Shown here in pieces: positions 8,578-33,035 of a DNA stretch of 36,953 bases. Origin of the DNA: an uncultured Porphyromonadaceae bacterium (GTDB lineage: Bacteria > Bacteroidota > Bacteroidia > Bacteroidales > Muribaculaceae); assembly GCA_947174995.1 (NCBI GenBank), contig CAMWLC010000025.1:1-36953 (forward strand), in the 5' to 3' direction. Every line of letters starts with the position of its first letter. Position 1 is the first letter of the stretch. Under the pieces are notes generated by a model. That model was not told where the DNA came from. It saw only the letters and a program-made list of their open reading frames with translations, and searched no databases. Position numbers and translations under genes: made by a program.

Positions 8578-9849
8578 ATGACCAATCTGCTCTTCATCGG
8601 ACAACATTTCCCCCCCGGAATGATGCGCTCCTTGGGACGCGACACCCGGGGACGCGCGGGATTCTCGAACCACAATTTCGAGACTGCCCTCATGCGCGGG
8701 TTCGCCTCCCGGCCCGATACGGTCATGCGTGCCATTACCGTCCCGCTGCAATACAGCTGGCCCCGAAGCAGTTCACGGCTGAGGATTCCCCGCGAGTCCT
8801 ACTCCTTCGAGGGGGTCCCGGTCAGGGGGGTGGGATACCTGAATCTTCCGGCTTTCTCCATGCTGATGACTTCGGAGGCCATGACCCGGGCGATCCGGGA
8901 GGAGATAGAGAAGTTCGAGGGGGAGGATGTGTACATAGTGATCAACACTCCGCTGCTTCCCGTGGGGGAGGCCCTGAGGAGGCTGAAGGGGAGGGTGTCG
9001 AAAAGGATACACACCACCCTCATAGTGCCTGACATACCCTCGTGCGTGGCCTCGATGGCCGGGATGGGGGGACTCAAGGGGAGGGTGATGGGGCATATCA
9101 ACAGCCGCGCCATGAGCCTGGCCCGCGAATATGACCGCTACGTCTTCCTCACCGGGGCGATGAATGATTTCTTCAATGTCCCGGCAGACCGCTTCATGGT
9201 GATGGAGGGGCTGGTGGAGCCGACCCCTCAGGACGATGCGGCTGAAGCCGGCGCCGCGCCGGGCATGGAGGGGCGGGGCGAGGGGGAGCCGGATGTGGTG
9301 CTGTATACCGGTTCGCTGTTCGAGGTGTTTGGCGTGATGCGTCTCGTGGAGGCCTTCCTGGCCGGAAACTTCCGCAATGCCGAGCTCCGGATATGCGGCT
9401 CGGGCGACACCGCCGGGAATTTGCGTGCGATAGCCGCCCGGCACCCGAGCGTGAAGTTTCTCGGTCTCTTGGGGGCCGAGGAGACCCGTAAGCTCCAGCG
9501 ACGCGCCGCCATACTGGCCAATCCGCGTCCGGCCGGGGGGGAATACACCCGCTATTCCTTCCCGTCGAAGACCTTGGAGTATCTTGCGGCCGGGAAACCT
9601 GTGGTGATGAACCGTCTGCCGGGCATACCCGAGGAGTATGACCCCTACGTGGTCTATCCCGCCGACGAGTCGCCCCGGGCCTGGACCGAAGCCCTGCGCC
9701 GTCTGCTGGAGATGACGCCCCGGCAGCGCGAGGCCATTGGGGAGGCCGGGCGCCGGTTCGTGACCCGGTGCAAGACGCCGCAGGTGCAGACGGGGAGGAT
9801 AATGGATTTCATCACATCCGCCACGACAGGGAAGGGAAACGATTATTGA
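8578..9849 (+). CDS. Glycosyltransferase, GT4-like
   Basis: The 423-residue protein has a two-domain GT-B layout: an N-terminal half beginning LLFIGQHFPPGMM, and a C-terminal nucleotide-sugar half with VVLYTGSLFEVFGVMRLVEA, LRICGSGDT, VKFLGLLG and FPSKTLEYLAAGKPVVM, where the Glu lies in the usual E-x7-E-like donor region. It would transfer a sugar at the cytoplasmic face during assembly of a surface glycan. Sugar and linkage cannot be assigned. It is first in the series behind the promoter at 8493. Confidence 0.85.
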   Translation: MTNLLFIGQHFPPGMMRSLGRDTRGRAGFSNHNFETALMRGFASRPDTVMRAITVPLQYSWPRSSSRLRIPRESYSFEGVPVRGVGYLNLPAFSMLMTSEAMTRAIREEIEKFEGEDVYIVINTPLLPVGEALRRLKGRVSKRIHTTLIVPDIPSCVASMAGMGGLKGRVMGHINSRAMSLAREYDRYVFLTGAMNDFFNVPADRFMVMEGLVEPTPQDDAAEAGAAPGMEGRGEGEPDVVLYTGSLFEVFGVMRLVEAFLAGNFRNAELRICGSGDTAGNLRAIAARHPSVKFLGLLGAEETRKLQRRAAILANPRPAGGEYTRYSFPSKTLEYLAAGKPVVMNRLPGIPEEYDPYVVYPADESPRAWTEALRRLLEMTPRQREAIGEAGRRFVTRCKTPQVQTGRIMDFITSATTGKGNDY

Positions 9850-9865
9850 CAGAGAAAAAGAGAGA

Positions 9866-11026
9866 ATGAAGAAGATAATGCTTGTGTTCGGCACCCGCCC
9901 GGAGGCCATCAAGATGGCCCCGTTGGTCAAGGAGTTCCGCAGCCGCCCCGAAGAGTTCGCCACTACGGTGTGTGTCACGGGGCAGCACCGCGAGATGCTT
10001 GACCAGGTGCTTGACATTTTCGGCATAACCCCTGACTATGACCTTGACATAATGCGTCCCGGGCAGGACCTCTACGACGTGACGTCACGCGTGCTCACCG
10101 GTATGCGCGACGTGCTGGAGAGGGAGAAGCCCGACATGGTGCTCGTGCACGGCGACACCACGACCTCCATGGCGGCCGCCCTCGCCGCTTTTTACAGCCA
10201 CATCCCGGTGGGACACGTGGAGGCGGGACTGCGCACCCATAATCCAGCCTCCCCCTGGCCCGAGGAGATGAACCGCCAGATCACGGGCCGCATAGCCTCG
10301 CGCCACTTCGCCCCAACCCCCCTGGGACGCCGCAATCTCCTGGCCGAGAACGTCGAGGGGGAGAGCATCGAGGTGACGGGAAACACGGTGATCGACGCCC
10401 TGCGCGATGTGGTGGTGCGCATACAGGACAATCCGGAGCTGCAGCAGGAGCTCCACCGCCGCATACTCAGGGCAGGATATGACGTCCGCCGTCTCGGAGA
10501 GGGGCGCCGCCTGGTGCTCGTCACGGGCCACAGGCGCGAGAATTTCGGCGAGGGGTTCCGCTCGGTGTGCCGCGCCCTGCGCACCCTCTCGGAGAGATAC
10601 CCGGAGGTGGATTTCGTCTATCCCATGCACCTGAATCCGAATGTGCGTCGCCCGATACGGGAAGCCTTCGGAGAGGAGCTGGACCGCAAGGGGAGCAATA
10701 TGTTCTTCATAGAGCCGTTGGGCTATCTCTCGTTCGTATTCCTCATGGAGAAGGCATATATAGTGCTGACCGACAGCGGAGGTATCCAGGAGGAGGCCCC
10801 CGGCCTGGGCAAGCCGGTGCTCGTGATGCGCGACACCACGGAGCGCCCCGAGGCCCTGGAGGCCGGCACGGTGCGCCTCGTGGGCACCGACTGCCCGTTG
10901 ATCGTCTCGGAAGTCTCCCGGCTTCTTGACGACCGCCGGGCATACGAGGCGATGTCGCAGGCCGTCAATCCCTACGGCGACGGCAATGCCTGCAAAAGGA
11001 TAGCCGACGCCTGTCTCAGGTCATAA
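9866..11026 (+). CDS. wecB: UDP-N-acetylglucosamine 2-epimerase (non-hydrolysing)
   Basis: WecB interconverts UDP-GlcNAc and UDP-ManNAc, supplying ManNAc or its derivatives to surface glycans. The 386-residue protein carries the family motifs in order: FGTRPEAIKMAPLVKE at the N-terminus, HGDTTTSMAAALAAFY, VGHVEAGLRT, EEMNRQITGRIASRHFAPT, GHRRENFGEG and TDSGGIQEEAPGLGKP, with ERPEA near the end. No UDP-ManNAc dehydrogenase is visible in the window. The gene starts 16 nt after the preceding glycosyltransferase. Confidence 0.95.
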   Translation: MKKIMLVFGTRPEAIKMAPLVKEFRSRPEEFATTVCVTGQHREMLDQVLDIFGITPDYDLDIMRPGQDLYDVTSRVLTGMRDVLEREKPDMVLVHGDTTTSMAAALAAFYSHIPVGHVEAGLRTHNPASPWPEEMNRQITGRIASRHFAPTPLGRRNLLAENVEGESIEVTGNTVIDALRDVVVRIQDNPELQQELHRRILRAGYDVRRLGEGRRLVLVTGHRRENFGEGFRSVCRALRTLSERYPEVDFVYPMHLNPNVRRPIREAFGEELDRKGSNMFFIEPLGYLSFVFLMEKAYIVLTDSGGIQEEAPGLGKPVLVMRDTTERPEALEAGTVRLVGTDCPLIVSEVSRLLDDRRAYEAMSQAVNPYGDGNACKRIADACLRS

Positions 11027-11063
11027 GACCGCACATTTTCCCCCGACACATTGAAACGCATCA

Positions 11064-12185
11064 ATGATAGCACTCCTCAGATCCACCGACGGCCAACCCG
11101 ACTCACGGTTTGAGAAATACACTGACTTCCTCGCTTCCGAAGGAATCCCGGCCATCACCGTGTGCTGGGACCGCCTGGGAGTGAAGACTCCCTCAAAAGA
11201 CCGGCTCTACTACAAGCGTCCGGCCCGATACGGCGAGGGAATACGCAACCTCGTGGGCCTCGCGGGGTTCAATCTCTATATATGGAGGCAGCTGTGGCGG
11301 CGCAGGAAGGATTATAAGGTGATTCATGCCGCCGACTTCGACACGGTGCTCCCCGCCCTGATGGCCAAGCTGCTGCTCGGCAAGCGGGTGATCTACGACA
11401 TATATGACTGGTACATGGACTCGCGCGGCATCCGCAACAAGCTCGTGCGTGCCCTTTTCACCGGCATCGAATGGTTTACCGTAAAGGGGGCCGACACCGT
11501 AATAATCTGCGAGGAGGGGCGCCGCAAGCAGATAGTGTGGAAGCCGCGCAAGCTCTGGATTCTCCCTAACATACCCTCTCTTCAGACCAAGCGCCTTCCG
11601 AGAAGGAAGCCGGGGGATCCCATCAAGGTGGCTTACGTGGGCATCCTCTCGCCCGAGCGCGGACTGGAGGAGCTCATCGCCCTGGCGGAGAAAGTGCGGG
11701 ACGTGCATGTCACCGTGGGGGGATTCGGACCCCTGGAGGGGGATATGGCCGATGCGGCCCGAAGGCTTGACAACTTCACCTTCCTGGGTCGCCTCCCCTA
11801 TTCCGAAGCCCTCGAGACGATGGCGGGAGCCGACATGATCTACGCGATGTATCACACCTCCAACCCCAACCACATACTGGCCGCCCCCAACAAATATTAC
11901 GAGGGTCTCGCCCTGGGACGCCCCATCATCACCACACGCGACACGCTTGTGGGCGACAGGGTGGAGGAATCGGCCACGGGATATGTCATAGGGGAGAAAA
12001 AAGAGGACCTTGTCAAGCTGTTCAGCAGATTTAATGAGGATGAATATATTAAAATCTGTAATAATGCCGTTCATATATGGGACACCCGTTACAGCGGGTA
12101 TGTGGCACGCTTCATGAAGGAGAAATACCTCCCCTGCATACTGGCCGCCTCCCACGACAGAAGAAACGCTGACGACAAGAAATGA
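11064..12185 (+). CDS. Glycosyltransferase, GT4-like
   Basis: The 373-residue GT-B protein has an N-terminal acceptor domain (HAADFDTVLPALMAKLLLGK, VIYDIYDWYMDSR) and a C-terminal domain with KVAYVGILSPERGLEELIAL, VGGFGPLEGDM, FLGRLPYSEALETM and NKYYEGLALGRPIITT. It belongs to the same broad family as its neighbours but is clearly a separate gene. Its ATG is 37 nt after wecB and its TGA overlaps the next gene (ATGA). Confidence 0.85.
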   Translation: MIALLRSTDGQPDSRFEKYTDFLASEGIPAITVCWDRLGVKTPSKDRLYYKRPARYGEGIRNLVGLAGFNLYIWRQLWRRRKDYKVIHAADFDTVLPALMAKLLLGKRVIYDIYDWYMDSRGIRNKLVRALFTGIEWFTVKGADTVIICEEGRRKQIVWKPRKLWILPNIPSLQTKRLPRRKPGDPIKVAYVGILSPERGLEELIALAEKVRDVHVTVGGFGPLEGDMADAARRLDNFTFLGRLPYSEALETMAGADMIYAMYHTSNPNHILAAPNKYYEGLALGRPIITTRDTLVGDRVEESATGYVIGEKKEDLVKLFSRFNEDEYIKICNNAVHIWDTRYSGYVARFMKEKYLPCILAASHDRRNADDKK

Positions 12186-13237
12186 AGATATTGCATGTTA
12201 TAACCCTTAGCGGAGTAGGAGGCGCCTCAGCGGTCGTCGCCCAGCTCTCCAACGCCCTGGTGGAGCTGGGACATGAGATTATGGTCGTCGCGGGAGAGGG
12301 AGACGGAAAGCTCTTCAACCTAATGGACAAGCGTATCAAGACGCGCAGGATACCATCCCTGGTGCGCCGTATCTCCCCGCTCAACGAGCTCAAGACACTT
12401 GTCGCCCTGCGTGACGTCTACCGCCAGTTCAAGCCTGACATCATCCATCTTCATTCCTCGAAAGCCGGAATATTGGGGCGCGTGGCTTTCCCGGCTTCAA
12501 AGATAATCTACACGGTCCACGGATTCGACTCCATCCGTCTGGTATACAGGAAATTTCTCCCGCTTGAGAAATGCCTGCAAAAAAAATGCTCGGCCATCGT
12601 GGGTGTGAGCCGCTACGATGTCCGCAACCTCAATGCCGAGGGGATAAAGGAAAACGTCAGTTACGTCTACAACGGAATAACGCGCCCCGAACCCCTCGCG
12701 GAGGATCCTTTCAAAGCATGGAGGGGATACCGGCGCATAGTGCTCTGCATAGCGCGCCTGGCCGCCCCCAAGCGGCATGACCTCTTTATTGAGGTGGCAC
12801 GCAGGATGCCGGACTGCGCCTTCCTTTGGATCGGCAATCATGAAGAGCCCGACCTGGAATATCCCGACAACGTGTTTTTTATCGGAAGTATCCTCAGCGC
12901 CGGCTCCTACTCGCGGTATGCCGACGCTTTCCTTCTCCCTACCGATTACGAAGGGCTCCCGATAGTGATTATCGAGGCTATGGCCAACGGCACCCCTGTC
13001 GTCGCATCCGCCGTAGGAGGTGTGCCGGAACTGCTTGACGGAAACACCGGCTTCGCTGTAGAAAACAATCCGGACGCGATGGCCGAGAGGCTGCGAAGGA
13101 TTTTCAACGACGAGGAGTGCCGGAAAAAAATGTCGGAATCAGCCCGACAAACATACGAGAAGACATTCACCGACGGCAAGATGACCGACGGATACCTGCG
13201 CATCTACACGAAGATTCACGAAAAAAACAAAAGATGA
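12182..13237 (+). CDS. Glycosyltransferase, GT4 family
   Basis: The 351-residue protein begins MKILHVITLSGVGGASAVVA, the typical GT4 start with a glycine-rich acceptor loop. It carries IHLHSSKAGILGR, VGVSRYDVRNL, YVYNGI, IARLAAPKRHDLFIEVARRM and LPTDYEGLPIVIIEAMANGT with the E-x7-E donor motif (EGLPIVIIE). It is likely a cytoplasmic-face transferase in glycan assembly. It overlaps both neighbours by ATGA, so translation of the three genes is coupled. Confidence 0.9.
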   Translation: MKILHVITLSGVGGASAVVAQLSNALVELGHEIMVVAGEGDGKLFNLMDKRIKTRRIPSLVRRISPLNELKTLVALRDVYRQFKPDIIHLHSSKAGILGRVAFPASKIIYTVHGFDSIRLVYRKFLPLEKCLQKKCSAIVGVSRYDVRNLNAEGIKENVSYVYNGITRPEPLAEDPFKAWRGYRRIVLCIARLAAPKRHDLFIEVARRMPDCAFLWIGNHEEPDLEYPDNVFFIGSILSAGSYSRYADAFLLPTDYEGLPIVIIEAMANGTPVVASAVGGVPELLDGNTGFAVENNPDAMAERLRRIFNDEECRKKMSESARQTYEKTFTDGKMTDGYLRIYTKIHEKNKR

Positions 13238-14229
13238 AAGTCACACTAATAGGAGGAAGCGGTTTCATAGGAACCCGCCTGATAGATCTGCTCATGCAGG
13301 AACCGGATCGGTATGAACTGACCAATATCGATCTCGAACCGAGCCACTTTTTCAATGAGATAACCACCATCGGGGATGTCCGCGTGCAGGAAGATATGGA
13401 CAGGATGCTCAAGGGTTCGGATGTGGTGGTCCTCCTGGCGGCGCAACACCGCGATGATGTGACACCCGTCTCGCTATATTACGACACCAACGTGAAGGGT
13501 ATGGAGACAGCGCTCCGCGCCATGGAGCATAACGGCATCAAACGCCTCGTATTCTTCTCTTCAGTCGGTATCTACGGCATCAACAAGCCCCATCCCGACG
13601 AGTCACACCCCGCCGATCCGATCAACCACTACGGCAAGTCGAAATGGGAGGCGGAGGAAGTGCTGCGGAAATGGTATGCTTCACATCCTGACCTCAACAT
13701 CAACATAGTGCGCCCTACGGTGGTCTTCGGAGAGCGCAACCGCGGAAACGTCTACAACCTTCTTCACCAGATAGCCACGGGGCGGTTCATGATGGTCGGC
13801 AAGGGTGAGAATCAGAAGTCAATGGCATACGTGGGAAATGTGGTGGCTTTCGTGAAATATCTGATCGACCACAAGACTCAGGGATATGATGTCTTCAATT
13901 ACATCGACAAGCCCGACTGCGATATGAACCACCTTGTGGATCATGTCGGCAAAGTTCTCGGCAAGTCGATCCCGACGGTGCGTCTCCCCTATTGGCTCGG
14001 CATGGCCGGAGGCTACTGCTTCGATGCTCTCGCATTCGTCACCCGGCGCAAACTCCCGATTTCATCCGTCAGAGTGAAGAAATTCTGCGCCAACACGCGT
14101 TTCGACTCCTCGAAGGCCATGTCCATAGGGTTCGTGCCCCCATATACGCTTGACGAGGGGTTGGCGCGCACCCTGGAGTTCGAGTTCGTGCATCCCCGCA
14201 CCGACGATCTTATCTTCAAAACGGAATAG
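13234..14229 (+). CDS. NAD(P)-dependent sugar epimerase/dehydratase (SDR)
   Basis: The extended SDR has a Rossmann start MKVTLIGGSGFIGTRL (GGSGFIG, residues 7-13), the FFSSVGIYG stretch holding the catalytic Ser, and HYGKSKWEAE with the YxxxK pair. It has 331 residues. I chose the ATG at 13234, which overlaps the preceding stop by ATGA; the frame is also open upstream to 13117 but that lies inside the glycosyltransferase. The long C-terminal part (LPYWLGMAGGYCFDAL) resembles enzymes acting on nucleotide or lipid-linked sugars. Exact substrate unknown. Confidence 0.85.
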   Translation: MKVTLIGGSGFIGTRLIDLLMQEPDRYELTNIDLEPSHFFNEITTIGDVRVQEDMDRMLKGSDVVVLLAAQHRDDVTPVSLYYDTNVKGMETALRAMEHNGIKRLVFFSSVGIYGINKPHPDESHPADPINHYGKSKWEAEEVLRKWYASHPDLNINIVRPTVVFGERNRGNVYNLLHQIATGRFMMVGKGENQKSMAYVGNVVAFVKYLIDHKTQGYDVFNYIDKPDCDMNHLVDHVGKVLGKSIPTVRLPYWLGMAGGYCFDALAFVTRRKLPISSVRVKKFCANTRFDSSKAMSIGFVPPYTLDEGLARTLEFEFVHPRTDDLIFKTE

Positions 14230-14231
14230 CC

Positions 14232-15395
14232 ATGAAGGCAGCCCTCGTAGCGGTGGCCTACAACCGCATCAATTCCCTGCGCCGTCTGCTGCGCTCGCTG
14301 GAAGAGGCCGATTACGGAGACGAAAGGGTGACGCTCATCATAAGCGTCGACAAAAGCGACTCCGACGAAGTGGAACGCTTCGCCACCGCCTACGAATGGC
14401 CTCACGGACCCAAGAGGGTGAAGCTCCACAAGCGCAACATGGGTCTGCGCGCACATATCCTCTCGCAGGGAGAGGAGGAGTTTGACGAGTTCGACACGCT
14501 GGTGATTCTCGAGGACGACATCATCGTCTCCCCGGCTTTCTTCAACTTCACCCGCCATGCCGTGGAGAAATATTCCGGCGATCCCCGCATAGCCGGCATC
14601 AGCCTCTATTCGTTTCCCCTGAACTACCTGACCGGGCGCCCCTTTGCCCCCATGCACCGGGGCCATGACGTGCACTTCATGCACACGGCCCAGTCGTGGG
14701 GAGAGGTGTGGATGCGCGATTCCTGGCGCCGCTTCCACGCCTGGTACAAGGACAACACTGACTTCGGCCCCGATGCCGACGTGCCCGCCTCACTCTTCAA
14801 ATGGAGCCGCTCATGGCTCAAATATCACACGCGATACTGCATCGAGACGGGATGCTATTTCGTGTATCCCAATGTGGCCTACTCGTCAAACTGCGGCGAC
14901 GCCGGCACCCACACCGCAGGCTACAACTGCTATCAGACCATCCTTCAGACCCGCTGCGCCCTGCCGCTACGCCTTCCGGACTCGGTGGAGGAGGGGGTCA
15001 GGTATGACGCCTTTTTCGAGAACGAGGAGCTGTACGGCGCCCTCGGGCTGAGCCGCGAGGAGTGCGTGCTCGACCTCAACGGATACCGCGGGGCCGTGGC
15101 GGGACGCAGATACTGCCTGTCGTCGCTGACGCTTCCTTACTCCTCCGTCAGGAGCTTCGGTCTCAACCGCCGGCCGGTGGAGACCAACATCCTGGGCAAC
15201 GAGCCGGGGGATGAGCTCCATCTGTATGACACATCCGTCCCGGCCCCGGCGCCTCAGGCGGCGGGAGTGCCCGGCGACATACTGTATTCCTTTCGGCTGC
15301 CCGGCATGACTGCTATCGTCCGCAAATACGGTCTGCGCAGGTTCTTTACAGAACTGCTCCGTGCCGGCGTCAAGGCCCTCCTCCGACGAAAATAA
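14232..15395 (+). CDS. Glycosyltransferase, GT-A fold (GT2/GNT-I-like)
   Basis: The 387-residue protein starts AALVAVAYNRINSLRRLLRS, the usual GT-A nucleotide-sugar start, and has the metal-binding acidic motif LVILEDDIIVSPAFF around residue 95. The body (SFPLNYLTGRPFAPMHRG, HTAQSWGEVWMRDSWRRF) resembles Bacteroidetes glycosyltransferases related to the GNT-I type. The C-terminal ~90 residues are poorly conserved in appearance. It starts 2 nt after the SDR gene stops, in the same operon. Confidence 0.82.
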   Translation: MKAALVAVAYNRINSLRRLLRSLEEADYGDERVTLIISVDKSDSDEVERFATAYEWPHGPKRVKLHKRNMGLRAHILSQGEEEFDEFDTLVILEDDIIVSPAFFNFTRHAVEKYSGDPRIAGISLYSFPLNYLTGRPFAPMHRGHDVHFMHTAQSWGEVWMRDSWRRFHAWYKDNTDFGPDADVPASLFKWSRSWLKYHTRYCIETGCYFVYPNVAYSSNCGDAGTHTAGYNCYQTILQTRCALPLRLPDSVEEGVRYDAFFENEELYGALGLSREECVLDLNGYRGAVAGRRYCLSSLTLPYSSVRSFGLNRRPVETNILGNEPGDELHLYDTSVPAPAPQAAGVPGDILYSFRLPGMTAIVRKYGLRRFFTELLRAGVKALLRRK

Positions 15396-15437
15396 ACATC
15401 CGCTCCTCATCTTCCACCCAATCATATACCTCCGCTT

Positions 15438-16535
15438 ATGGCAGACAAGAAAAAAGCGCTCATCACAGGCATCACCGGCCAGGACGGCAGCTTCCTGGCG
15501 GAACTGCTCCTTGAGAAAGGCTACGAGGTGCACGGCACGATACGCCGCTCCTCCGTCGATTACCGCGAACGCATAGCCCACCTCGAGGGGCGACCGGGAT
15601 TTCATCTGCATTACGCCGACCTCACGGACTCCATGAGCATCGTGAATGTGCTCGGCAGGGTACGCCCCGACGAGGTGTACAACCTCGCGGCCCAGAGCCA
15701 TGTGCAGGTGTCGTTCGACTCCCCGGAGTTCACCGCCGAGGTGGACGCCACGGGGGTGCTTCGCATGCTGGAAGGGATACGCCAGGTGGGGATAGCCGAT
15801 ACGTGCCGCTTCTACCAGGCATCCACTTCGGAGCTTTACGGCAAGGTGGAGGAGGTGCCCCAGAACGAGAATACCCCCTTCCATCCCTATTCGCCATACG
15901 CCGTGGCCAAGCTCTATGGCTTCTGGATCGTGAAGGAATACCGCGAGGCATACGGCATGTATGCCTGCTCTGGAATACTCTTCAACCACGAGTCGGAGCG
16001 GCGCGGCGAGACCTTCGTGACCCGCAAGATCACCCTCGCGGCCGCCCGCATAGCCCAGGGGAAGCAGGAGAAGCTCTATCTGGGCAATCTCTCCAGCCTG
16101 CGCGACTGGGGATACGCGCGTGACTACGTGGAGTGCATGTGGCTCATACTCCAGCAGCCCGAGCCTGACGACTACGTCATCGCCACCGGGGAGCAGCACA
16201 GCGTGAGGGAGTTCTGCGTCAGGGCCTTCCGCCGCGCCGGTATCGAATTGAGATTCGAGGGGGAGGGACCCGACGAAAAGGGCATCGACGTGAAGACCGG
16301 GAAGGTGGTGGTGGAGGTCTCTCCCGACTTCTACCGCCCCACCGACGTGGTGAATCTCCTGGGCGACCCGACGAAGGCCCGCGAGAAACTCGGCTGGGAC
16401 CCCGGGAAAACATCCTTTGAAGAGCTTGTCAACCTTATGGTGGACTCCGATATGGCCAAAGTGGCCGCCGAGCACGCCGGCGAGCGCGTGCGCATGAATC
16501 TTGCGGAATACCTTGAGAAGGGAATAACCAAGTGA
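15438..16535 (+). CDS. gmd: GDP-mannose 4,6-dehydratase
   Basis: Gmd converts GDP-D-mannose to GDP-4-keto-6-deoxymannose, the precursor of GDP-fucose, GDP-rhamnose and related sugars. The 365-residue protein has [14 protein letters not shown] (glycine motif at residues 11-17), [30 protein letters not shown], the YAVAK catalytic pair (Tyr154, Lys158) and [20 protein letters not shown], all diagnostic for Gmd. The partner GDP-fucose synthase (fcl) is not beside it in this window, so the final sugar is unknown. Confidence 0.95.
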
Positions 16536-26275: not shown

Positions 26276-26341
26276 AATTATCTAACCGAAAATCATCGCT
26301 AATACGAGGCTGCCCCCGGAATCAAAATTCTCCTATAACTC

Positions 26342-26404
26342 TCTGATTATACGTCTTATAAGTCTTATATATCTTATAAGATTTATACGTCTTATATATC
26401 CTAT
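26342..26404. repeat. 9-bp tandem repeat array E (ACGTCTTAT type)
   Basis: Seven units (ACGTCTTAT, AAGTCTTAT, ATATCTTAT, AAGATTTAT and variants) lie between the terminator at 26424-26465 and the Nudix promoter. The plus-strand unit is the reverse complement of the array F unit. This array is not close to a start codon. Confidence 0.85.
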
Positions 26405-26423
26405 AAATCGTGGGCGTCATGGC

Positions 26424-26465
26424 AAAAAAACAGAGCCGGGGCTTTTTCACAAAAGTCCCGGCTCT
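26424..26465 (-). terminator. Strong intrinsic terminator, minus strand
   Basis: AGAGCCGGG (26432-26440) pairs with CCCGGCTCT (26457-26465), and the stem extends inward through a G-U pair and CTTTT/AAAAG. On the minus strand it is followed by seven T residues (26430-26424). It ends transcription coming from ogt or from the small-RNA candidate. Confidence 0.88.
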
Positions 26466-26518
26466 TCTATAACCAAAATTCAAGTACAAATTCTTTATGC
26501 TTGTCCTCACGGACTTCT
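26424..26518 (-). ncRNA. Candidate small RNA or ogt 3' leader-out region
   Basis: A minus-strand TAATTTTG (26532-26525) could start a transcript near 26518 that ends at the terminator, about 95 nt. The predicted 5' part folds as GTCC-GTGA-GGAC with an outer CTTG/CAAG pairing, and the 3' end is the terminator hairpin. The TTTG box is poor at the expected distance, so this may only be the 3' untranslated region of ogt. Confidence 0.3.
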
Positions 26519-26587: not shown

Positions 26588-27133
26588 TTAATAAAAGTTC
26601 CGTGATTCCGATTCAAGCGCGAGAAGCCTCCGCTTGGCGTCAAGACCTCCGGCATATCCGGTCAAGGCTCCCGAGGCACCGATGATGCGGTGACAGGGGA
26701 CAAATATTGAGATGGGATTGGCACCCACTGCCGATGCTACGGCTCTCACGGCGGCCGGGCGTCCGATGCGTCGGGCCAGGGCCGAGTATGAGAGTGTCTG
26801 CCCGTAAGGCACCTCCCGAAGAGCCCGCCACACGGCCATACGGAAGGGCGTGCCCGTCAGGAGGAGCGGTACATCGAAATCCTTGCGCTCTCCGGCGAAA
26901 TATTCGTCAAGTTGCCGGATGGCGCCCGCAAGCACGTCAGACAGACTGTCTGCTCTGTCAAAGGGGACTGAGGAGGAGAGCGCACGCGCCACGGAGGTCG
27001 CGTGTCGCCCCCGCTCCCAATCGCACATACAGAGGCTGCCCTCCGTCGCCCCCAGCACAAGGGGACCGCAGGGGGAGTCATATCTTGCTGTCACCACGGG
27101 GAGAACACCGCGGCTTGAAATAGCTGTATCCAT
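26588..27133 (-). CDS. ogt: Methylated-DNA--protein-cysteine methyltransferase
   Basis: The 181-residue protein repairs O6-alkylguanine by moving the alkyl group onto its own cysteine. It has the MGMT/ATL fold signature GTPFRMAVWRALREVPYGQT and the acceptor site FVPCHRII with Cys147, preceded by AVGANPI. I chose the ATG at 27133. The frame stays open upstream to 27283 through repeat array F and would add a Tyr-Ser-Tyr-Lys-rich extension, which I regard as an artefact of a 9-bp period. Terminates at 26424-26465. Confidence 0.93.
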   Translation of the reverse strand: MDTAISSRGVLPVVTARYDSPCGPLVLGATEGSLCMCDWERGRHATSVARALSSSVPFDRADSLSDVLAGAIRQLDEYFAGERKDFDVPLLLTGTPFRMAVWRALREVPYGQTLSYSALARRIGRPAAVRAVASAVGANPISIFVPCHRIIGASGALTGYAGGLDAKRRLLALESESRNFY

Positions 27134-27138
27134 ATAGG

Positions 27139-27246
27139 ACGTATAAGATTTATAAGACGTATAAGATTTATAAGACGTATAAGATTTATAAGACGTATAA
27201 GATTTATAAGACGTATAAGATATATAAGATCTATAAGACGTATAAT
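27139..27246. repeat. 9-bp tandem repeat array F (ACGTATAAG/ATTTATAAG)
   Basis: Twelve units, the first nine alternating ACGTATAAG and ATTTATAAG, so the higher-order unit is 18 bp. It is the most regular array in the window and ends 5 nt before the ogt ATG on the minus strand. Confidence 0.95.
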
Positions 27247-27307
27247 CGATTTTTCGCGAACCGATTATACATAAAAACGCCAAAATGGAGCAAAGAATAT
27301 TAGAATG

Positions 27308-27339
27308 TTTGGTTTTATCGTGAAAATATGTTAACTTTG
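27308..27339 (+). promoter_or_regulatory. Promoter of the six-gene exported operon
   Basis: TTTG (27308-27311), 20 bp, TAACTTTG (27332-27339) is an exact match. The expected start near 27346 supports the ATG at 27392 for the first gene, with a leader of about 46 nt. Confidence 0.78.
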
Positions 27340-27391
27340 TCAGCAGGTGGGGATTATTTCCACCCGCCTGCCATATCCCATCATACCGACA

Positions 27392-27874
27392 ATGATACGC
27401 AACAAACTTATCCCCTCCCTGACCGCCTCATTGCTGCTCCTCGCCGGAGCCTCAGCCCATGCCGAATCGGGCATAGCCGTAGTGCAACGCGACGGACAGC
27501 GGACCGAGACTCCTTACAGCAGTCTTGACCGTATTCTAATCACACCCCAAGGAATCACTACCGTTACCCGGGCAGGAGAGTCCCGTCAGACTCCTTATTC
27601 GTCGCTTGACCGCATCTGCATCAATGCCGCGACCAGCGCCGCCCCGTCCCTTGAAAAGGATTCATTCCGGGTATGGCCAACGCTCACGGACGGCGATGTC
27701 TACGTGAGCTGCACTGAGGACAGCGGAGTTAATGTGTATGACCTCGGCGGCAACCTCCTTCTGTCAGTCCCGTCACAGAACGGAGAGACACTACATCTCC
27801 CCCTGGGCCGGCTCCCTGCCGGAATGTATGTCGTCACCGCATCCGGCGCTTCGGTAAAGATCATAAAGAAATAA
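27392..27874 (+). CDS. Exported protein with T9SS-like C-terminal tail
   Basis: The 160-residue protein starts MIRNKLIPSLTASLLLLAGA, a signal peptide ending near AHA/ESG. Two similar segments follow, each ending in TPYSSLDRI (about residues 35 and 65), an internal repeat. The C-terminal 70 residues have the sorting-domain pattern DSFRVWPT...NVYDLGGNLLLS...LPAGMYVVTASGASVKIIKK, typical of type A T9SS signals. The ATG at 27392 fits the promoter; a start at 27347 would coincide with the transcription start. It is first in an operon whose other products are all exported. Confidence 0.82.
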   Translation: MIRNKLIPSLTASLLLLAGASAHAESGIAVVQRDGQRTETPYSSLDRILITPQGITTVTRAGESRQTPYSSLDRICINAATSAAPSLEKDSFRVWPTLTDGDVYVSCTEDSGVNVYDLGGNLLLSVPSQNGETLHLPLGRLPAGMYVVTASGASVKIIKK

Positions 27875-27905
27875 CGCTCCACCCCAAGAAACAAGACCCT
27901 ACTCA

Positions 27906-29288
27906 ATGAATATACCCGCATTACGTCCCCTGCGCGGCTCCCTCCTTCTCCTGGCGGCTTCGGCCATCGCCGCTCCTCTCTGCACGGCTTCGGCCGCCGA
28001 TGAGGTGACTCCCGAGACCATGTATCTGGTGAAAGACAACCGTGTCGTAGGCCGGTATGACGCCTCTGCCGTGGACTACATCACTTTCGACCTCCCGGGC
28101 GACATCATCGAGACACCGATATGGCTCACCGTAGACGAAGTGGGACGCAACAATGTCACATACACCGTGTCGACCGAAACCCCCTCCACGGCTTATGTCC
28201 ACAACATCATATCCTGGTATCTGGCCAATATGTATGCCATGACCTATTACGGAGGCTCAATCGACGAGCTGGACGAGGCCACGGCCGACTATATCCTGAA
28301 GCTCTGCCTGGAGTCAGCGGCCTACATAGGCATGGGTACCGACACCTACACCCAGCGCGACTATGAGGATGACGGCACGGGAAACGAATACTACACTTCG
28401 CGTTTCAGCGTGCAGCCGGCCACGAAATATTTCCTGGTGGCCTGGGAGGTGGATCCCGTGACGCAGGAACCCCTCGACACCATGGTCAAGACCACTTTCA
28501 CCACTCTCGATCCTGGGGTCAGCCCGTACAAGGTGGAGGTGGAGAGCCTGGGACAGGTGGAAGACGGTCTCGCCTTCGATTTCTCCGGCACCTCCGGCGA
28601 GCTCCTCTACGTCACCACCGTGTTCGGATACCGCTCCACGATGGAGGCCTATATAGCCGCCTACGGCGAGGACAATCTCTTCGGCACATGGGGGCAGAAC
28701 TGGACTCCGGACCAGCTCCTTGAGGATGCCGTCTGGATGGTGGACGAGTCAGGAGAGTACGTGATGATGTGCCGAGGTTTCGACGCCGACGGCAACATGA
28801 CCTCTTCCACCCCCGTATACGCCACCTACGAGGCTCCGCAGAGCGAAGGCCCGAAAATCGAGATACTCTCCAGAAGCAAGGGGGACGGAAAAGTGAGCGT
28901 GGGATTCGAGATCACCCCGAGCAACGTCTCCGAGGCCTACGTGTATGTGGACACGGAAAACAATGTGGACGATATGCTCAACGACGGCTGGAAACTCTGG
29001 GAGATAGCTTCACGCCCCAAGGCCCTTGACGTCACTTACGAGATCAACACGATGGGAGAATACAATTACTCCTGCGAGGTGACACCCGACATCTGGCACA
29101 CCATGCTCATCTACGCGCTCGACGACAGCAGCAACCGCAGCGTGTGCCGCATCAATTTCAACACCGCTGAAGACAGCACCTGGGACGTCATCAACCCCGC
29201 CGGACGTCCCCTCCCCTCGCGCATACGCCCCGCCATACGCCACAAGGGCGCTTCCCCCGTGATAAAAAAGAATTTCCAACACCGATAA
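27906..29288 (+). CDS. Large exported beta-rich protein, function unknown
   Basis: The 460-residue protein has a signal peptide (ending near CTASA/ADE), then a YLVKDNRVVGRYDASAVDYI segment resembling a short N-terminal module common on Bacteroidetes exported proteins. Two beta-rich domains follow (about 70-200 and 200-330), and a third (about 330-430) contains KVSVGFEITPSNVSEAYVYV; these may be immunoglobulin- or fibronectin-like. The tail is basic (RPLPSRIRPAIRHKG) and lacks a sorting pattern. I recognise no named family. It lies 31 nt after the first gene and 4 nt before the CsgG-like gene. Confidence 0.72.
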   Translation: MNIPALRPLRGSLLLLAASAIAAPLCTASAADEVTPETMYLVKDNRVVGRYDASAVDYITFDLPGDIIETPIWLTVDEVGRNNVTYTVSTETPSTAYVHNIISWYLANMYAMTYYGGSIDELDEATADYILKLCLESAAYIGMGTDTYTQRDYEDDGTGNEYYTSRFSVQPATKYFLVAWEVDPVTQEPLDTMVKTTFTTLDPGVSPYKVEVESLGQVEDGLAFDFSGTSGELLYVTTVFGYRSTMEAYIAAYGEDNLFGTWGQNWTPDQLLEDAVWMVDESGEYVMMCRGFDADGNMTSSTPVYATYEAPQSEGPKIEILSRSKGDGKVSVGFEITPSNVSEAYVYVDTENNVDDMLNDGWKLWEIASRPKALDVTYEINTMGEYNYSCEVTPDIWHTMLIYALDDSSNRSVCRINFNTAEDSTWDVINPAGRPLPSRIRPAIRHKGASPVIKKNFQHR

Positions 29289-29292
29289 TATC

Positions 29293-30171
29293 ATGAAAAA
29301 GACATTCCTGATGACTCTCGCCCTCATTCTGGGCACCATGCTCGGCTTCGCCCAGGACGAGCCCAAAGGCAAGCTAAACGTATTCTTCGACTACTTCGAC
29401 CGTCCGGGTTCCGTATCCTTCATCTGGGCGGAGACCATACGCAACAATGTGATGGAGGGGATACAGAAGACTAACCGCGTCAACCTCATCGACGTGGACT
29501 CCAGAGGCACGCTCGCCATCGAGAGAAGCCGCCGCGAGCAGGACAACGTGTCGGCCGGCGAGGACCTCGACCGCCTCAAGGTGATGACCGAAGAGGGGGC
29601 CAACCTCCTGGTGAAGGGAATCGTGACGGACGTAACCTCAAAGGAGTCGGTCGGCTCCAAGGGGGAGTCGCTCGGATATGAGGCCGCAGTGGCGTTCACA
29701 CTCAAGGTGATAGACCCCGCTAACGGCACCACCATCCACACCAAGTCGTTCAAGTTTCCGAAAAACTTCCTGACCGACCTCACGAGCACCCTAACGCAGC
29801 GCACCGCGAAAAGCGCCGACGAGGCCGTGCAGAATGTAGCCAAGACCATGGGCAAGGAGATGAGAATCTTTGTCGAGGAGGCTTTCCCCTCTGTCGGGAA
29901 AATCGTTGAGCTCGACGAGGTGAAGGGCAATGATGCCAAGACGGCATATATCAATCTCGGCTCGGACAACGGCATGTCGAAGGGGGCCAAGTTCGAGGTG
30001 CGCGTGAAGCGCATGATCGCCGGAAGCACTTCTTACAAGATGCTCGGAGAGGCCGAGGTGGTGGATGTCGAAAGCGGAGATCTCTCCAAAATCAAGATCA
30101 AGAAGGGTGGCAAGGAAATCGGCGAGGCATTCAAGGCCGGACAGGACCTGGTGGTGAAATCCACCCGGTGA
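29293..30171 (+). CDS. CsgG/FlgO-like exported protein
   Basis: The 292-residue protein has a signal peptide without a lipobox (LGTMLGFA/QDE). Residues 27-175 have the CsgG/TolB-N order: a first strand KLNVFFDYFD, a helix with IRNNVMEGIQKTNRVNLIDV, GANLLVKGIVTDVT and VAFTLKVIDPANGTTIHTKS. Residues 195-292 (VGKIVELDEV, INLGSDNGMSKGAKFEVRVK, LGEAEVVDVESGDLSKIKI) look like the SH3-type barrel found at the C-terminus of FlgT-like proteins. CsgG forms the curli pore and FlgO is a flagellar outer-membrane accessory. No curli subunit is present. Family placement is by pattern only. Confidence 0.65.
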   Translation: MKKTFLMTLALILGTMLGFAQDEPKGKLNVFFDYFDRPGSVSFIWAETIRNNVMEGIQKTNRVNLIDVDSRGTLAIERSRREQDNVSAGEDLDRLKVMTEEGANLLVKGIVTDVTSKESVGSKGESLGYEAAVAFTLKVIDPANGTTIHTKSFKFPKNFLTDLTSTLTQRTAKSADEAVQNVAKTMGKEMRIFVEEAFPSVGKIVELDEVKGNDAKTAYINLGSDNGMSKGAKFEVRVKRMIAGSTSYKMLGEAEVVDVESGDLSKIKIKKGGKEIGEAFKAGQDLVVKSTR

Positions 30172-30178
30172 TAACGAT

Positions 30179-31477
30179 ATGATGAGACAGAGTTTTTTCA
30201 GGATAACGGCATCGGTCATCGCCATGGTATTCACCGTGGCGATGGCCCTCGCCATTCCGACTACGAGCGACGTGACGCTCGAAGGTCGCGATGGAGACGA
30301 AGTGACTCTCATCTCGGCGGCCGTGGCCCCGAAGTCCGCTGCCGCTGAGACTCTCGCCGTGAAACAGGCCCTCTTCGCCATCATGGAGCGCGGAGTGGAG
30401 GGTCTCAACGGCGGGCAACCCATGCTACTCTCCCCCAACAAGGCGTTCAACTACACGTTTTACAAGGAGAACAAGTATCTCAACTGCCTGGCCGGCAATC
30501 CCCTGAAGCTCGATGAGTCCAAAGTTGGCGGGGAACGGCGCGTGCGCGTGAAAGTGAGGGTAAACCTCGCCCGGCTGAAGGCCGACCTTGCAGCTGCCGG
30601 ATGTATTCTCTCCCCCGCATGGCAGGACAAGGGCCGTGCCTCCTCCACGGCTTCGCTGAATCCCACCATCGTGGTGGTGCCCTATATGCCGGCCGGCACG
30701 GATGACAGCTTCGAGGGCATGAAGGCCTTCATCGACTCCCTCCCCGCCGTCAGACACGCCCTGAACGCCGTCAGCTCGCAATTCGCCGCCCACGGCTACA
30801 AAACCCGCGATTTCACCACTATGGCGGCAAATTCAAAAACGGACGACCTCCTGATGGAGGGCACGCAGACGGATGCGGCGACAATGGTGATACAGCAATT
30901 GCCCGGCGACATCGTGGTGCGCGTGCAGCTGGACGTGGCAAATGAGGGAAACAAGGGGCAATGTGCACTCACGGTGGATGCCGTGGAGCGCCAGACAGCC
31001 GCAAAACTCTGTTCCGCCTCATTCTCCAGCGGACAGTATATGACCACCAACGCCATCCTTCTCACTGACAATGCTGTCAAAAAAATCGAAAAACCCTTCT
31101 TCAGCCAACTCGAGCAGGCCTTCGCCCGCACGGTGGAGAACGGACGGGAGATGAAACTCGAGTTCCTCCTCGGAGATACGGTAGCGGACTGGGATTTCGA
31201 CACCGAGACCCCGGTGACGGAGGCTGATTTCAAGGAGGTACTCGAGGAGTGGCTCAGAAGCCGGGCCTGCGGCGGAGTGTATGATATGTCGCAAAACAAC
31301 GACAAGTTCATCGCCGCCTCCATCAATATCCCTCTTTGGGATGCGGAGAAAGGGCGCAGCTATACGCTCGGAAATTTCAACTCGGAGCTAAGGAAGTTCC
31401 TCAAAAGCCACCTCGGGGACGCCTACCGCGCCAAGGTGACGGCCATGGGGCAGAAACTCATCATAACCATAGAATAA
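30179..31477 (+). CDS. Exported FlgT/DUF6175-like protein
   Basis: The 432-residue protein has a signal peptide (ending near ALA/IPT). Residues 35-140 resemble an LPP20/FlgT-N-type domain (APKSAAAETLAVKQALFAIM, then RRVRVKVRVNLARLKADLAA). From residue 160 the SLNPTIVVVPYMP start and the following alpha/beta region match my memory of the Bacteroidetes DUF6175 family; the end (AYRAKVTAMGQKLIITIE) fits this. It starts 7 nt after the CsgG-like gene. No enzymatic motif is seen; an envelope structural role is likely. Confidence 0.65.
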   Translation: MMRQSFFRITASVIAMVFTVAMALAIPTTSDVTLEGRDGDEVTLISAAVAPKSAAAETLAVKQALFAIMERGVEGLNGGQPMLLSPNKAFNYTFYKENKYLNCLAGNPLKLDESKVGGERRVRVKVRVNLARLKADLAAAGCILSPAWQDKGRASSTASLNPTIVVVPYMPAGTDDSFEGMKAFIDSLPAVRHALNAVSSQFAAHGYKTRDFTTMAANSKTDDLLMEGTQTDAATMVIQQLPGDIVVRVQLDVANEGNKGQCALTVDAVERQTAAKLCSASFSSGQYMTTNAILLTDNAVKKIEKPFFSQLEQAFARTVENGREMKLEFLLGDTVADWDFDTETPVTEADFKEVLEEWLRSRACGGVYDMSQNNDKFIAASINIPLWDAEKGRSYTLGNFNSELRKFLKSHLGDAYRAKVTAMGQKLIITIE

Positions 31478-31490
31478 CCATAGCTAATCC

Positions 31491-32033
31491 ATGACACCGC
31501 TCAGACATTTCCCGTGGGGGCTGATAGTCCTCATGATGCTATTGGCCGCAGGAGTCTCCACGATGGGGGCGCAGACGCGCTTCAGGATGCTCCCGGTGAA
31601 GACGGGAGGGGAGATAACTCAGGAGGTGGCCGACGCGCTGCGCGGCAAGACCGAAGAGATTCTGACCCGCAATTCAGCCCTGGCTCCCGACACGGCCGGA
31701 CACCCCTTCGAGATACGCGCCGACCTCACTGTCACGGGCAAGGACCGGACGTCGGGACTCGTGCGCAACGTCACCACTGCTACCGGAGAACTGACCCTCA
31801 CTATCCTCAACTCCTCCGACGGCACCCCATGCCACAGCGTCACGGTGCCCCTCAAGAGCGTGCTGAACGGGGGGAGCGGAAATATGGTCGCCGAGGCCCT
31901 TGTCCGCTCCATACGTCCCGCCGATACGGTCTACACCCGGTTTATCCGCGTGGCCCGCGAGCGCATAGCAGCCATGTATCCCTCCGACAGCGACACCGAA
32001 TCCCCCTCACCCTCATCGCACACTCCACAATGA
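31491..32033 (+). CDS. Small exported protein, FlgO/TolB-N-like
   Basis: The 180-residue protein has a hydrophobic signal (LIVLMMLLAAGVSTMGA). The body has a helix (QEVADALRGKTEEILTRNSA), strands FEIRADLTVTGKDRTSGLVR and TATGELTLTILNSSDGTPCH, then a small helix and VAEALVRSIRP. This resembles a shortened CsgG/FlgO-type domain that binds or displays a partner; I am not sure of the family. The gene overlaps the LPP20-like gene by ATGA, implying coupled synthesis of the two proteins. Confidence 0.6.
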   Translation: MTPLRHFPWGLIVLMMLLAAGVSTMGAQTRFRMLPVKTGGEITQEVADALRGKTEEILTRNSALAPDTAGHPFEIRADLTVTGKDRTSGLVRNVTTATGELTLTILNSSDGTPCHSVTVPLKSVLNGGSGNMVAEALVRSIRPADTVYTRFIRVARERIAAMYPSDSDTESPSPSSHTPQ

Positions 32034-32959
32034 TTCTCAGACTTACCGCAACCCTGCTGCTGACACTCCTATCTCTCGGCGTCGCCTCGGCCCGGGAAAC
32101 AAAGGTGATGGAACGCAGCGCCAAATCCACTCCGGTATGGCTCTCCTCTCCCACGCAGGGCTATATGGTGGCGGAGGCCGAGGCTTCCGATATGGGCACC
32201 GCGAGACAGAGGGCTGTTGACGAACTCGCCCGACAGATAGTGATGGCCGTGGCGGCAAACGTCTTGCACACCTCCCGGGCATCAGGCTCCTACGAAAATT
32301 CCGGCTCCGGCGTTTCGGAATCCGAATCATTCCGCTACGACACGAACATCGCCTCGGCAAATATCCCCTTCATCAAGGGGATAACCCTGGCGGAAGCCGC
32401 CGACACCTATTGGGAAAAGTTGCGCGAGAAAGACACTGACCGTATTTTATACCGTTTCGCAGTGCTTTATCCCCTCTCCGCCGAGGAACTCGGGCGTATG
32501 CGGGCCGAGTTTGAAAAGACCGACCGTGAGAAGCAGGAAGAGTTCGACTCGCTGAAAGAGGGGCTGCACAAGGCCGGAAGCACAGCCGATATAGAGGAAG
32601 CCATCACCGCTCTGGAGAGTCTCAAGGCCTACTTCTTCGACAACGTGCGCAGAACTCAGGCGGAGGGACTTCAGAAGGATTACAGGGGACTGTACAAGAG
32701 CCTTACGCTGCACACCGCGCCCGGCGAGGGCAACACGGTCATAGCCAAGGTGCTTCTTGACGGACGTCCCTTCCGCGTGGCGGGAGTGCCGAGGCTCAAA
32801 TCAGACTGCGCCTCGCGTCTTGAAGCTCAGCCTCTCCCCGACTCCTGCGGCTACATCATCACATACGATCCCATAGACTGTCTCCCCGGCGAAGAGCACT
32901 GGATAGACTTCAACCTCCGTATGCACGACACTCGCCTCTCCAAACGCATCTACCTCTGA
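32030..32959 (+). CDS. LPP20-family exported protein
   Basis: The 309-residue protein has a standard signal peptide (ending near ASA/RET), not a lipobox. Residues 30-135 show the LPP20 pattern (STPVWLSSPTQGYMVAEAEA, then ARQRAVDELARQIVMAVAAN). FlgP, an outer-membrane ring component beneath polar flagella, belongs to this family. A helical middle (residues 160-225) is followed by a C-terminal beta domain (VIAKVLLDGRPFRVAG..., EEHWIDFNLRM). The gene ends the operon at the terminator at 32997-33035. I set the start at 32030 although the frame is open further upstream. Confidence 0.72.
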   Translation: MILRLTATLLLTLLSLGVASARETKVMERSAKSTPVWLSSPTQGYMVAEAEASDMGTARQRAVDELARQIVMAVAANVLHTSRASGSYENSGSGVSESESFRYDTNIASANIPFIKGITLAEAADTYWEKLREKDTDRILYRFAVLYPLSAEELGRMRAEFEKTDREKQEEFDSLKEGLHKAGSTADIEEAITALESLKAYFFDNVRRTQAEGLQKDYRGLYKSLTLHTAPGEGNTVIAKVLLDGRPFRVAGVPRLKSDCASRLEAQPLPDSCGYIITYDPIDCLPGEEHWIDFNLRMHDTRLSKRIYL

Positions 32960-32996
32960 AAGCAGTCTTAAAATTGAAGATAGTCTTAAAGCAATC

Positions 32997-33035
32997 CGTC
33001 CCGGATGTCAAGATGACATCCGGGACGATCTTTTT
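32997..33035 (+). terminator. Intrinsic terminator between convergent genes
   Basis: CGTCCCGGATGTCA (32997-33010) pairs perfectly with 33014-33027 around a 3-nt loop, followed by five T residues at 33031-33035. It ends the six-gene operon and may also stop the TPR lipoprotein gene from the other side, though the T-run there is weaker. Positions 33038-33082 hold an AACTGAACACTG-type low-complexity tract. Confidence 0.9.

What the first reader, a model, noticed from the sequence alone, without database searches (positions are those of the whole stretch)
27308..33035. Six-gene all-exported operon resembling a FlgO/FlgT/FlgP set without a flagellum
One promoter and one terminator bracket six close-packed genes, each with a signal peptide. 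The last four look like CsgG/FlgO, FlgT/DUF6175, a small FlgO/TolB-N-like protein and LPP20/FlgP. In vibrios FlgO, FlgP and FlgT build outer-membrane rings around the flagellum. No flagellar or curli subunit gene is visible here. The first two products, one with a T9SS-like tail and one large beta-rich protein, could be surface parts displayed by the others. I propose a non-flagellar outer-membrane ring or pore for a surface structure.
Basis: partly seen in the sequence, partly recalled or inferred. Interest (0 to 1): 0.8.

Follow-up and report, generated by a model that had tools for sequence, protein, structure and literature searches.

The report
Non-flagellar FlgT/FlgP-like periplasmic gene module
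Four of the six genes form a conserved, apparently undescribed gene set of gut Bacteroidales whose products resemble parts of the outer-membrane rings around some flagella, although no flagellum genes were found in these bacteria; the other two genes are a separate pair that happens to sit in front.

The parts
27308..27339 (+). Bacteroidales-type promoter, TTTG (27308) and TAACTTTG (27332)
   Evidence: consensus recalled
27392..27874 (+). g1: 160-aa exported protein with a borderline T9SS type A sorting tail; first gene of the separable g1-g2 cassette
   Evidence: TIGR04183 20.9 bits vs 23, 22.1 bits in the genome scan; 6 of 6 g2 loci elsewhere have g1 directly upstream
27906..29288 (+). g2: 460-aa exported protein; second gene of the cassette
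   Evidence: homologues in 6 of 148 other family genomes sampled, 38-45% identity; g2 in 0 of 46 other g3 loci
29293..30171 (+). g3: 292-aa exported protein resembling the FlgT middle and C-terminal domains (LpoB/CsgG-like by Pfam, sub-threshold for the window protein)
   Evidence: profile A1 matches only FlgT chains in PDB at E 0.0096-0.017; members match LpoB 34/38, FlgT_C 11, FlgT_M 9, CsgG 8 at E up to 0.1
30179..31477 (+). g4: 432 aa, N-terminal beta-alpha-beta domain (about 30-140) plus DUF6175 (161-431) with a PelC/CsgG/FlgT-middle fold
31491..32033 (+). g5: 180-aa exported domain, distant relative of g3 by profile; lacks the C-terminal half present in most relatives aligned
   Evidence: hhalign A1 vs A4 E 4.3e-6 over 127 columns; alignment with five relatives of 366-387 aa
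32030..32959 (+). g6: 309-aa divergent LPP20/FlgP-type protein with a C-terminal Ig-like domain; ATGA overlap with g5
   Evidence: hhalign vs LPP20-type proteins of sibling clusters E 2.7e-7; AlphaFold2 pLDDT 84.6, pTM 0.70, hairpin 81-104 at pLDDT about 43; Ig-like part 225-309
32996..33028 (.). bidirectional intrinsic-terminator-like hairpin

Best explanation
g3-g6 is a conserved Bacteroidales envelope module of periplasmic proteins built from the folds of FlgT, PelC/CsgG and FlgP/LPP20, and most likely assembles into an oligomeric scaffold or ring at the inner face of the outer membrane. Shown here: gene linkage, export-signal-like N-termini, a model of DUF6175 as a PelC/CsgG/FlgT-middle-type fold, lack of a flagellar export gate. 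Inferred: oligomerisation, with g4/g3/g5 as TolB-N/CsgG-type subunits and g6 as the FlgP-like subunit whose hairpin would make ring contacts, and location at the outer membrane. More speculative: the scaffold docks an exported cysteine-protease-fold enzyme (transglutaminase-like downstream, or caspase fused, in some relatives) that acts on envelope proteins; no such gene is in the window's operon, and the rest of the genome was not searched for it. g1-g2 are passengers that share the promoter in this genome alone among those examined.
For: Linkage: g4 with g3 in 43 of 46 loci, order g3-g4-g5-g6 in 21 of 46, LPP20-type proteins in the cluster in 9 of 46; one of those, in L104, scores 46.6 bits over a 25.9 cut-off. 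Of the 30 fetched (best-scoring) DUF6175 loci of the order, 29 also have a g5 match, the other being cut by a contig end. Folds. Published passages say FlgP, Lpp20 and FlgT share an SHS2-like fold and that ring formation in the family correlates with an insertion between the SHS2 helix and second strand, a long beta-hairpin in FlgP (PMC12222027, passages); g6's model has strand 45-52, helix 55-74, hairpin 81-104, strands 125-133 and 139-148. [quoted passage not shown] Enzyme link: h8 in 9 of 46 loci, with invariant DCEDR, H and DPT in 7 aligned sequences; caspase fusion in L105 and L106. Flagellar export gate over cut-off in 0 of 198 genomes.
Confidence: 0.45

Rival explanations
1. Monomeric or small-complex envelope accessory proteins (TolB-N/LptE/LpoB-like) that help peptidoglycan synthesis or outer-membrane maintenance without forming a ring.
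Against: Window g3 is under the LpoB cut-off (14.9 vs 22.3 bits), has no lipobox and carries an extra C-terminal FlgT_C-like part; the top fold matches of g4 are PelC and CsgG, which form rings (PelC; CsgG: recalled).
Confidence: 0.25
2. A secretion or export channel in the style of CsgG or PelB-PelC, moving a protein or polysaccharide across the outer membrane.
For: DUF6175 fold nearest PelC and CsgG; TPR matches in 6 of 15 g5-family proteins, as PelC rings hold PelB's TPR part.
Against: None of the four conserved products looks like a barrel, though no barrel search was run; g4's strands 245-256, 259-270 and 276-283 are joined by short turns with no CsgG-type membrane hairpin; no constant substrate gene was recognised in the maps.
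Confidence: 0.12
3. One reading: g1 and g2 are surface parts displayed by an outer-membrane ring made by g3-g6.
For: Shared promoter, 4-base gap between g2 and g3; T9SS translocon SprA present, 2618 bits.
Against: g2 is with g3 in 0 of 46 other loci; g1-g2 pairs occur in 6 other genomes with no g3-g6 gene in the stretch seen; the closest named module (L116, 77% g3 identity) has another gene, RarA-like by eye, upstream.
Confidence: 0.06
4. The g2-g3 junction is an assembly artefact joining unrelated contigs.
For: The junction was seen in this assembly only; 0 of 46 other loci.
Against: GC3 of g2-g6 (0.71-0.80) is in the range of neighbouring genes, while the L116 relative's gene is 43% GC; the g3 and g6 proteins also occur on a second contig of 37984 bases, not inspected.
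Confidence: 0.07

Closest known systems
Vibrio flagellar H-ring, FlgO/FlgP/FlgT
   Same: FlgT-type middle and C-terminal sequence in g3, FlgT-middle-type fold in g4, LPP20/FlgP relation of g6, exported products, linked genes
   Different: No flagellum, FlgT-like parts split over two genes, no lipobox in the window's proteins, extra DUF6175 C-terminal and g6 Ig-like domains
PelC periplasmic ring of the Pel export complex
   Different: No PelB-like gene recognised in the set (not searched for); PelC is a lipoprotein, g4 has no lipobox
CsgG curli exporter
   Different: No membrane hairpins in g4's model, no lipobox; csgE/F and curli subunits were not searched for
DUF6175 (PF19672)
   Same: g4 is a member at 174.4 bits
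   Different: Window type has the N-terminal domain fused; no paper found on the family

Membership tests
DUF6175 (PF19672) | score over the curated cut-off | tested here: met
   g4 174.4 bits, cut-off 23
Flagellar H-ring (FlgO/FlgP/FlgT) | part of a flagellated cell | tested here: not met
   no flagellin match in own genome, which is 92% complete; FHIPEP 0 of 198 order genomes over cut-off, own included
Flagellar H-ring (FlgO/FlgP/FlgT) | FlgT N, M and C domains in one chain | tested here: not met
   M+C-like in g3, N+M-like in g4
Flagellar H-ring (FlgO/FlgP/FlgT) | ring formation at the outer membrane | not testable with these tools
   no complex prediction available
LPP20/FlgP | PF02169 over cut-off | tested here: not met
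   window g6 no hit; 2 of 24 scanned proteins match, best E 0.0043
LPP20/FlgP | SHS2-like domain with hairpin insert between helix and second strand | tested here: inconclusive
   topology seen in the model, hairpin pLDDT about 43; PDB comparison covered mainly the C-terminal domain
CsgG | core fold | tested here: met
CsgG | transmembrane beta-hairpins | tested here: not met
   short turns between g4 strands 245-283 in the model; g3 not modelled
LpoB | PF13036 over cut-off and lipoprotein signal | tested here: not met
   window g3 14.9 bits vs 22.3; no lipobox
T9SS cargo (g1) | sorting tail over cut-off | tested here: inconclusive
   20.9 and 22.1 bits vs 23; SprA present

The most novel reading that the evidence does not exclude
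Non-flagellated Bacteroidales carry a self-standing relative of the flagellar H-ring: a periplasmic ring of FlgT-, PelC- and FlgP-type subunits that serves as a docking platform for an exported transglutaminase-like or caspase-type enzyme. The ring parts of some flagellar motors and this module would share a non-flagellar ancestor.
Probability: 0.22. Interest if true: 0.85.

Novelty: new variant of a known kind. Interest (0 to 1): 0.56.

Why it matters
It gives a testable fold and role to DUF6175, over cut-off in 47 of 198 sampled genomes of the order, and shows FlgT/FlgP-type parts as a gene set of their own in bacteria without flagella. That bears on where the extra rings of high-torque flagellar motors came from. 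Named carriers such as Bacteroides cellulosilyticus DSM 14838 and B. fluxus YIT 12057 make it testable.

Tried and rejected
Six genes as one functional unit: rejected by the g1-g2 and g3-g6 separation. g1-profile hits in L050 (1260 aa), L058 (693 and 307 aa) and L064 (348 aa) are other, longer proteins reached after the profile had drifted, not g1.

Recent acquisition from a low-GC donor: not supported by composition, though g3 is patchy in the genus: 1 of 30 others (a partial match in G548), and 4 same-genus hits besides own in the larger family sample. The empty-site comparison was weak: of 12 genus loci fetched, some short, only G526 showed the TPR gene near the S41-Mfd genes without the operon, in another orientation.

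Dead ends: PDB profile searches for g6, g4, g5 and h8 gave no believable match. The FlgT_M genome scan rang in no control either, so it says nothing. A3 against A1 and A7 by hhalign was not significant. hhalign control pairs of other exported families gave E 0.0012, 0.055 and 0.00034, so the A2-A7 (2.7e-7), A2-A8 (1.2e-5) and A1-A4 (4.3e-6) values stand above them but are single-pair values. No FlgP or LPP20 chain was among the 50 rows listed for g6, which does not exclude it. Paper searches in the held library: DUF6175 0 papers; LPP20+CsgG+Bacteroid 0; FlgO+FlgP+FlgT+Bacteroid 2, listing only; further listings; passages read of PMC12222027, PMC5758724, PMC6375700 and PMC12141448.

Full report
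Observation. The window holds six packed exported genes at 27392-32959 with a Bacteroidales-type promoter at 27308-27339 and a hairpin terminator at 32996-33028. Only g4 has a curated family match over cut-off, DUF6175. The genome is 2.45 Mb in 82 contigs, 92% complete. That it is a Bacteroidales genome of the family Muribaculaceae is an inference: contigs of the same-family genomes G377, G235 and G534 have the same lengths as records titled uncultured Bacteroidales, Candidatus Amulumruptor caecigallinarius and Muribaculaceae bacterium IMSAGC_006.

Two modules. A search for g2 in 149 family genomes found it in 7, own included. In all 6 others a g1 homologue sits directly upstream and no g3-g6 homologue is in the stretch fetched (stretches of 4.1 to 13 kb, two of them near a contig end). 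g2's homology reaches the C-terminal end in most of these relatives, so the pair looks complete. Searches for g3 gave 16 of 393 order genomes, 22 of 149 and 27 of 397 family genomes, own included and at different thresholds, and 16 named loci. Nucleotide similarity to L117 begins inside g3; none was found with L116. The 4-base g2-g3 gap is therefore an arrangement seen only in this genome. Composition argues against a chimera with a low-GC source, but reads were not available.

Wider spread. DUF6175 is over its cut-off in 47 of 198 order genomes. In the 30 best-scoring loci fetched, 29 have a g5 match beside it and the thirtieth is cut by a contig end; most also have one or two proteins of about 150-180 aa matching the g4 profile upstream, or that part fused. 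In 6 longer stretches, 4 also have g6-type proteins, and all 6 have a 434-618 aa protein before the set, 2 of them weakly g3-like (E 3e-7). In other loci g4 itself is split into an N-domain gene and a DUF6175 gene. So a set of this kind is spread over the order, with the window's version a compact form.

Mechanism. Shown: co-ordered proteins with export signals, of FlgT/PelC/CsgG and probably LPP20/FlgP type, in an order where FHIPEP is over cut-off in 0 of 198 genomes (rings in 4 of 14 controls; one weak match below cut-off in G038); by their handles these look like the 198. Inferred: they form a periplasmic scaffold or ring under the outer membrane. Against a pore: no membrane hairpin in g4 and no product of the four that looks like a barrel. 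What it serves is open. A lead is the companion enzyme: h8, a 500-600 aa exported protein with invariant DCEDR, H and DPT in 7 aligned sequences, a transglutaminase-like triad by recalled motif, follows the set in 9 of 46 loci, with both g6-type and LPP20-type clusters; and in L105 and L106 the g4-type protein carries a caspase domain (E 2e-20 and 8.2e-19). Pfam supports the transglutaminase reading only weakly and the PDB profile search not at all.

Comparison with the known. The Vibrio H-ring is FlgO, FlgP and FlgT (PMC6375700, passages). This set is built of similar parts but is not a member: no flagellum, FlgT-like parts split over two genes, no lipobox in the window's proteins. It is not CsgG or LpoB by the tests listed. 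I found no paper on DUF6175 and none joining LPP20, CsgG and Bacteroid- in the held library, which lacks most subscription papers.

Verdict.

Noticed in passing
L120:13584-15386, L125:13478-15184, L128:13530-15296, L104:480-2321, L111:11138-12670, L198:12310-13854: h8: exported 500-600 aa protein with invariant DCEDR / H / DPT (transglutaminase-like triad by recalled motif) downstream of the module in 9 of 46 loci; absent from the window, own genome not searched.
   Followed up: partly
L105:7076-8851, L106:3180-4964: g4-type N-domain and degenerate DUF6175 fused to a caspase (Peptidase_C14) domain, directly after g3.
   Followed up: partly
L120:12805-13437, L125:12770-13402, L128:12880-13533: h7: conserved exported protein of about 210-220 aa between g6 and h8, in 7 of 46 loci, no convincing family match.
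   Followed up: no
L063:2960-5178; L051:5212-7002; L052:6444-7490; L110:6623-7783: Zinc-ribbon proteins, and in L063 also an SPFH/Band 7-GYF protein, lie beside or inside the module.
   Followed up: no
31491-32033: The window's g5 lacks about 200 C-terminal residues present in its nearest relatives, yet keeps the ATGA overlap with g6; L196 and L055 also have short g5.
   Followed up: partly
26322-26510 and about 27130-27250, - strand: Tandem-repeat-like DNA giving SYTSYK / KTYKSY repeats in frame, flanking the methylguanine methyltransferase gene; seen by eye in the translations.
   Followed up: no
about 27343-27371: A GC-rich inverted repeat, seen by eye, in the leader between the promoter and g1.
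   Followed up: no
8578-16535: Run of + strand genes including glycosyltransferases and a UDP-GlcNAc 2-epimerase (three of them scanned), looking like a surface polysaccharide cluster.
   Followed up: no
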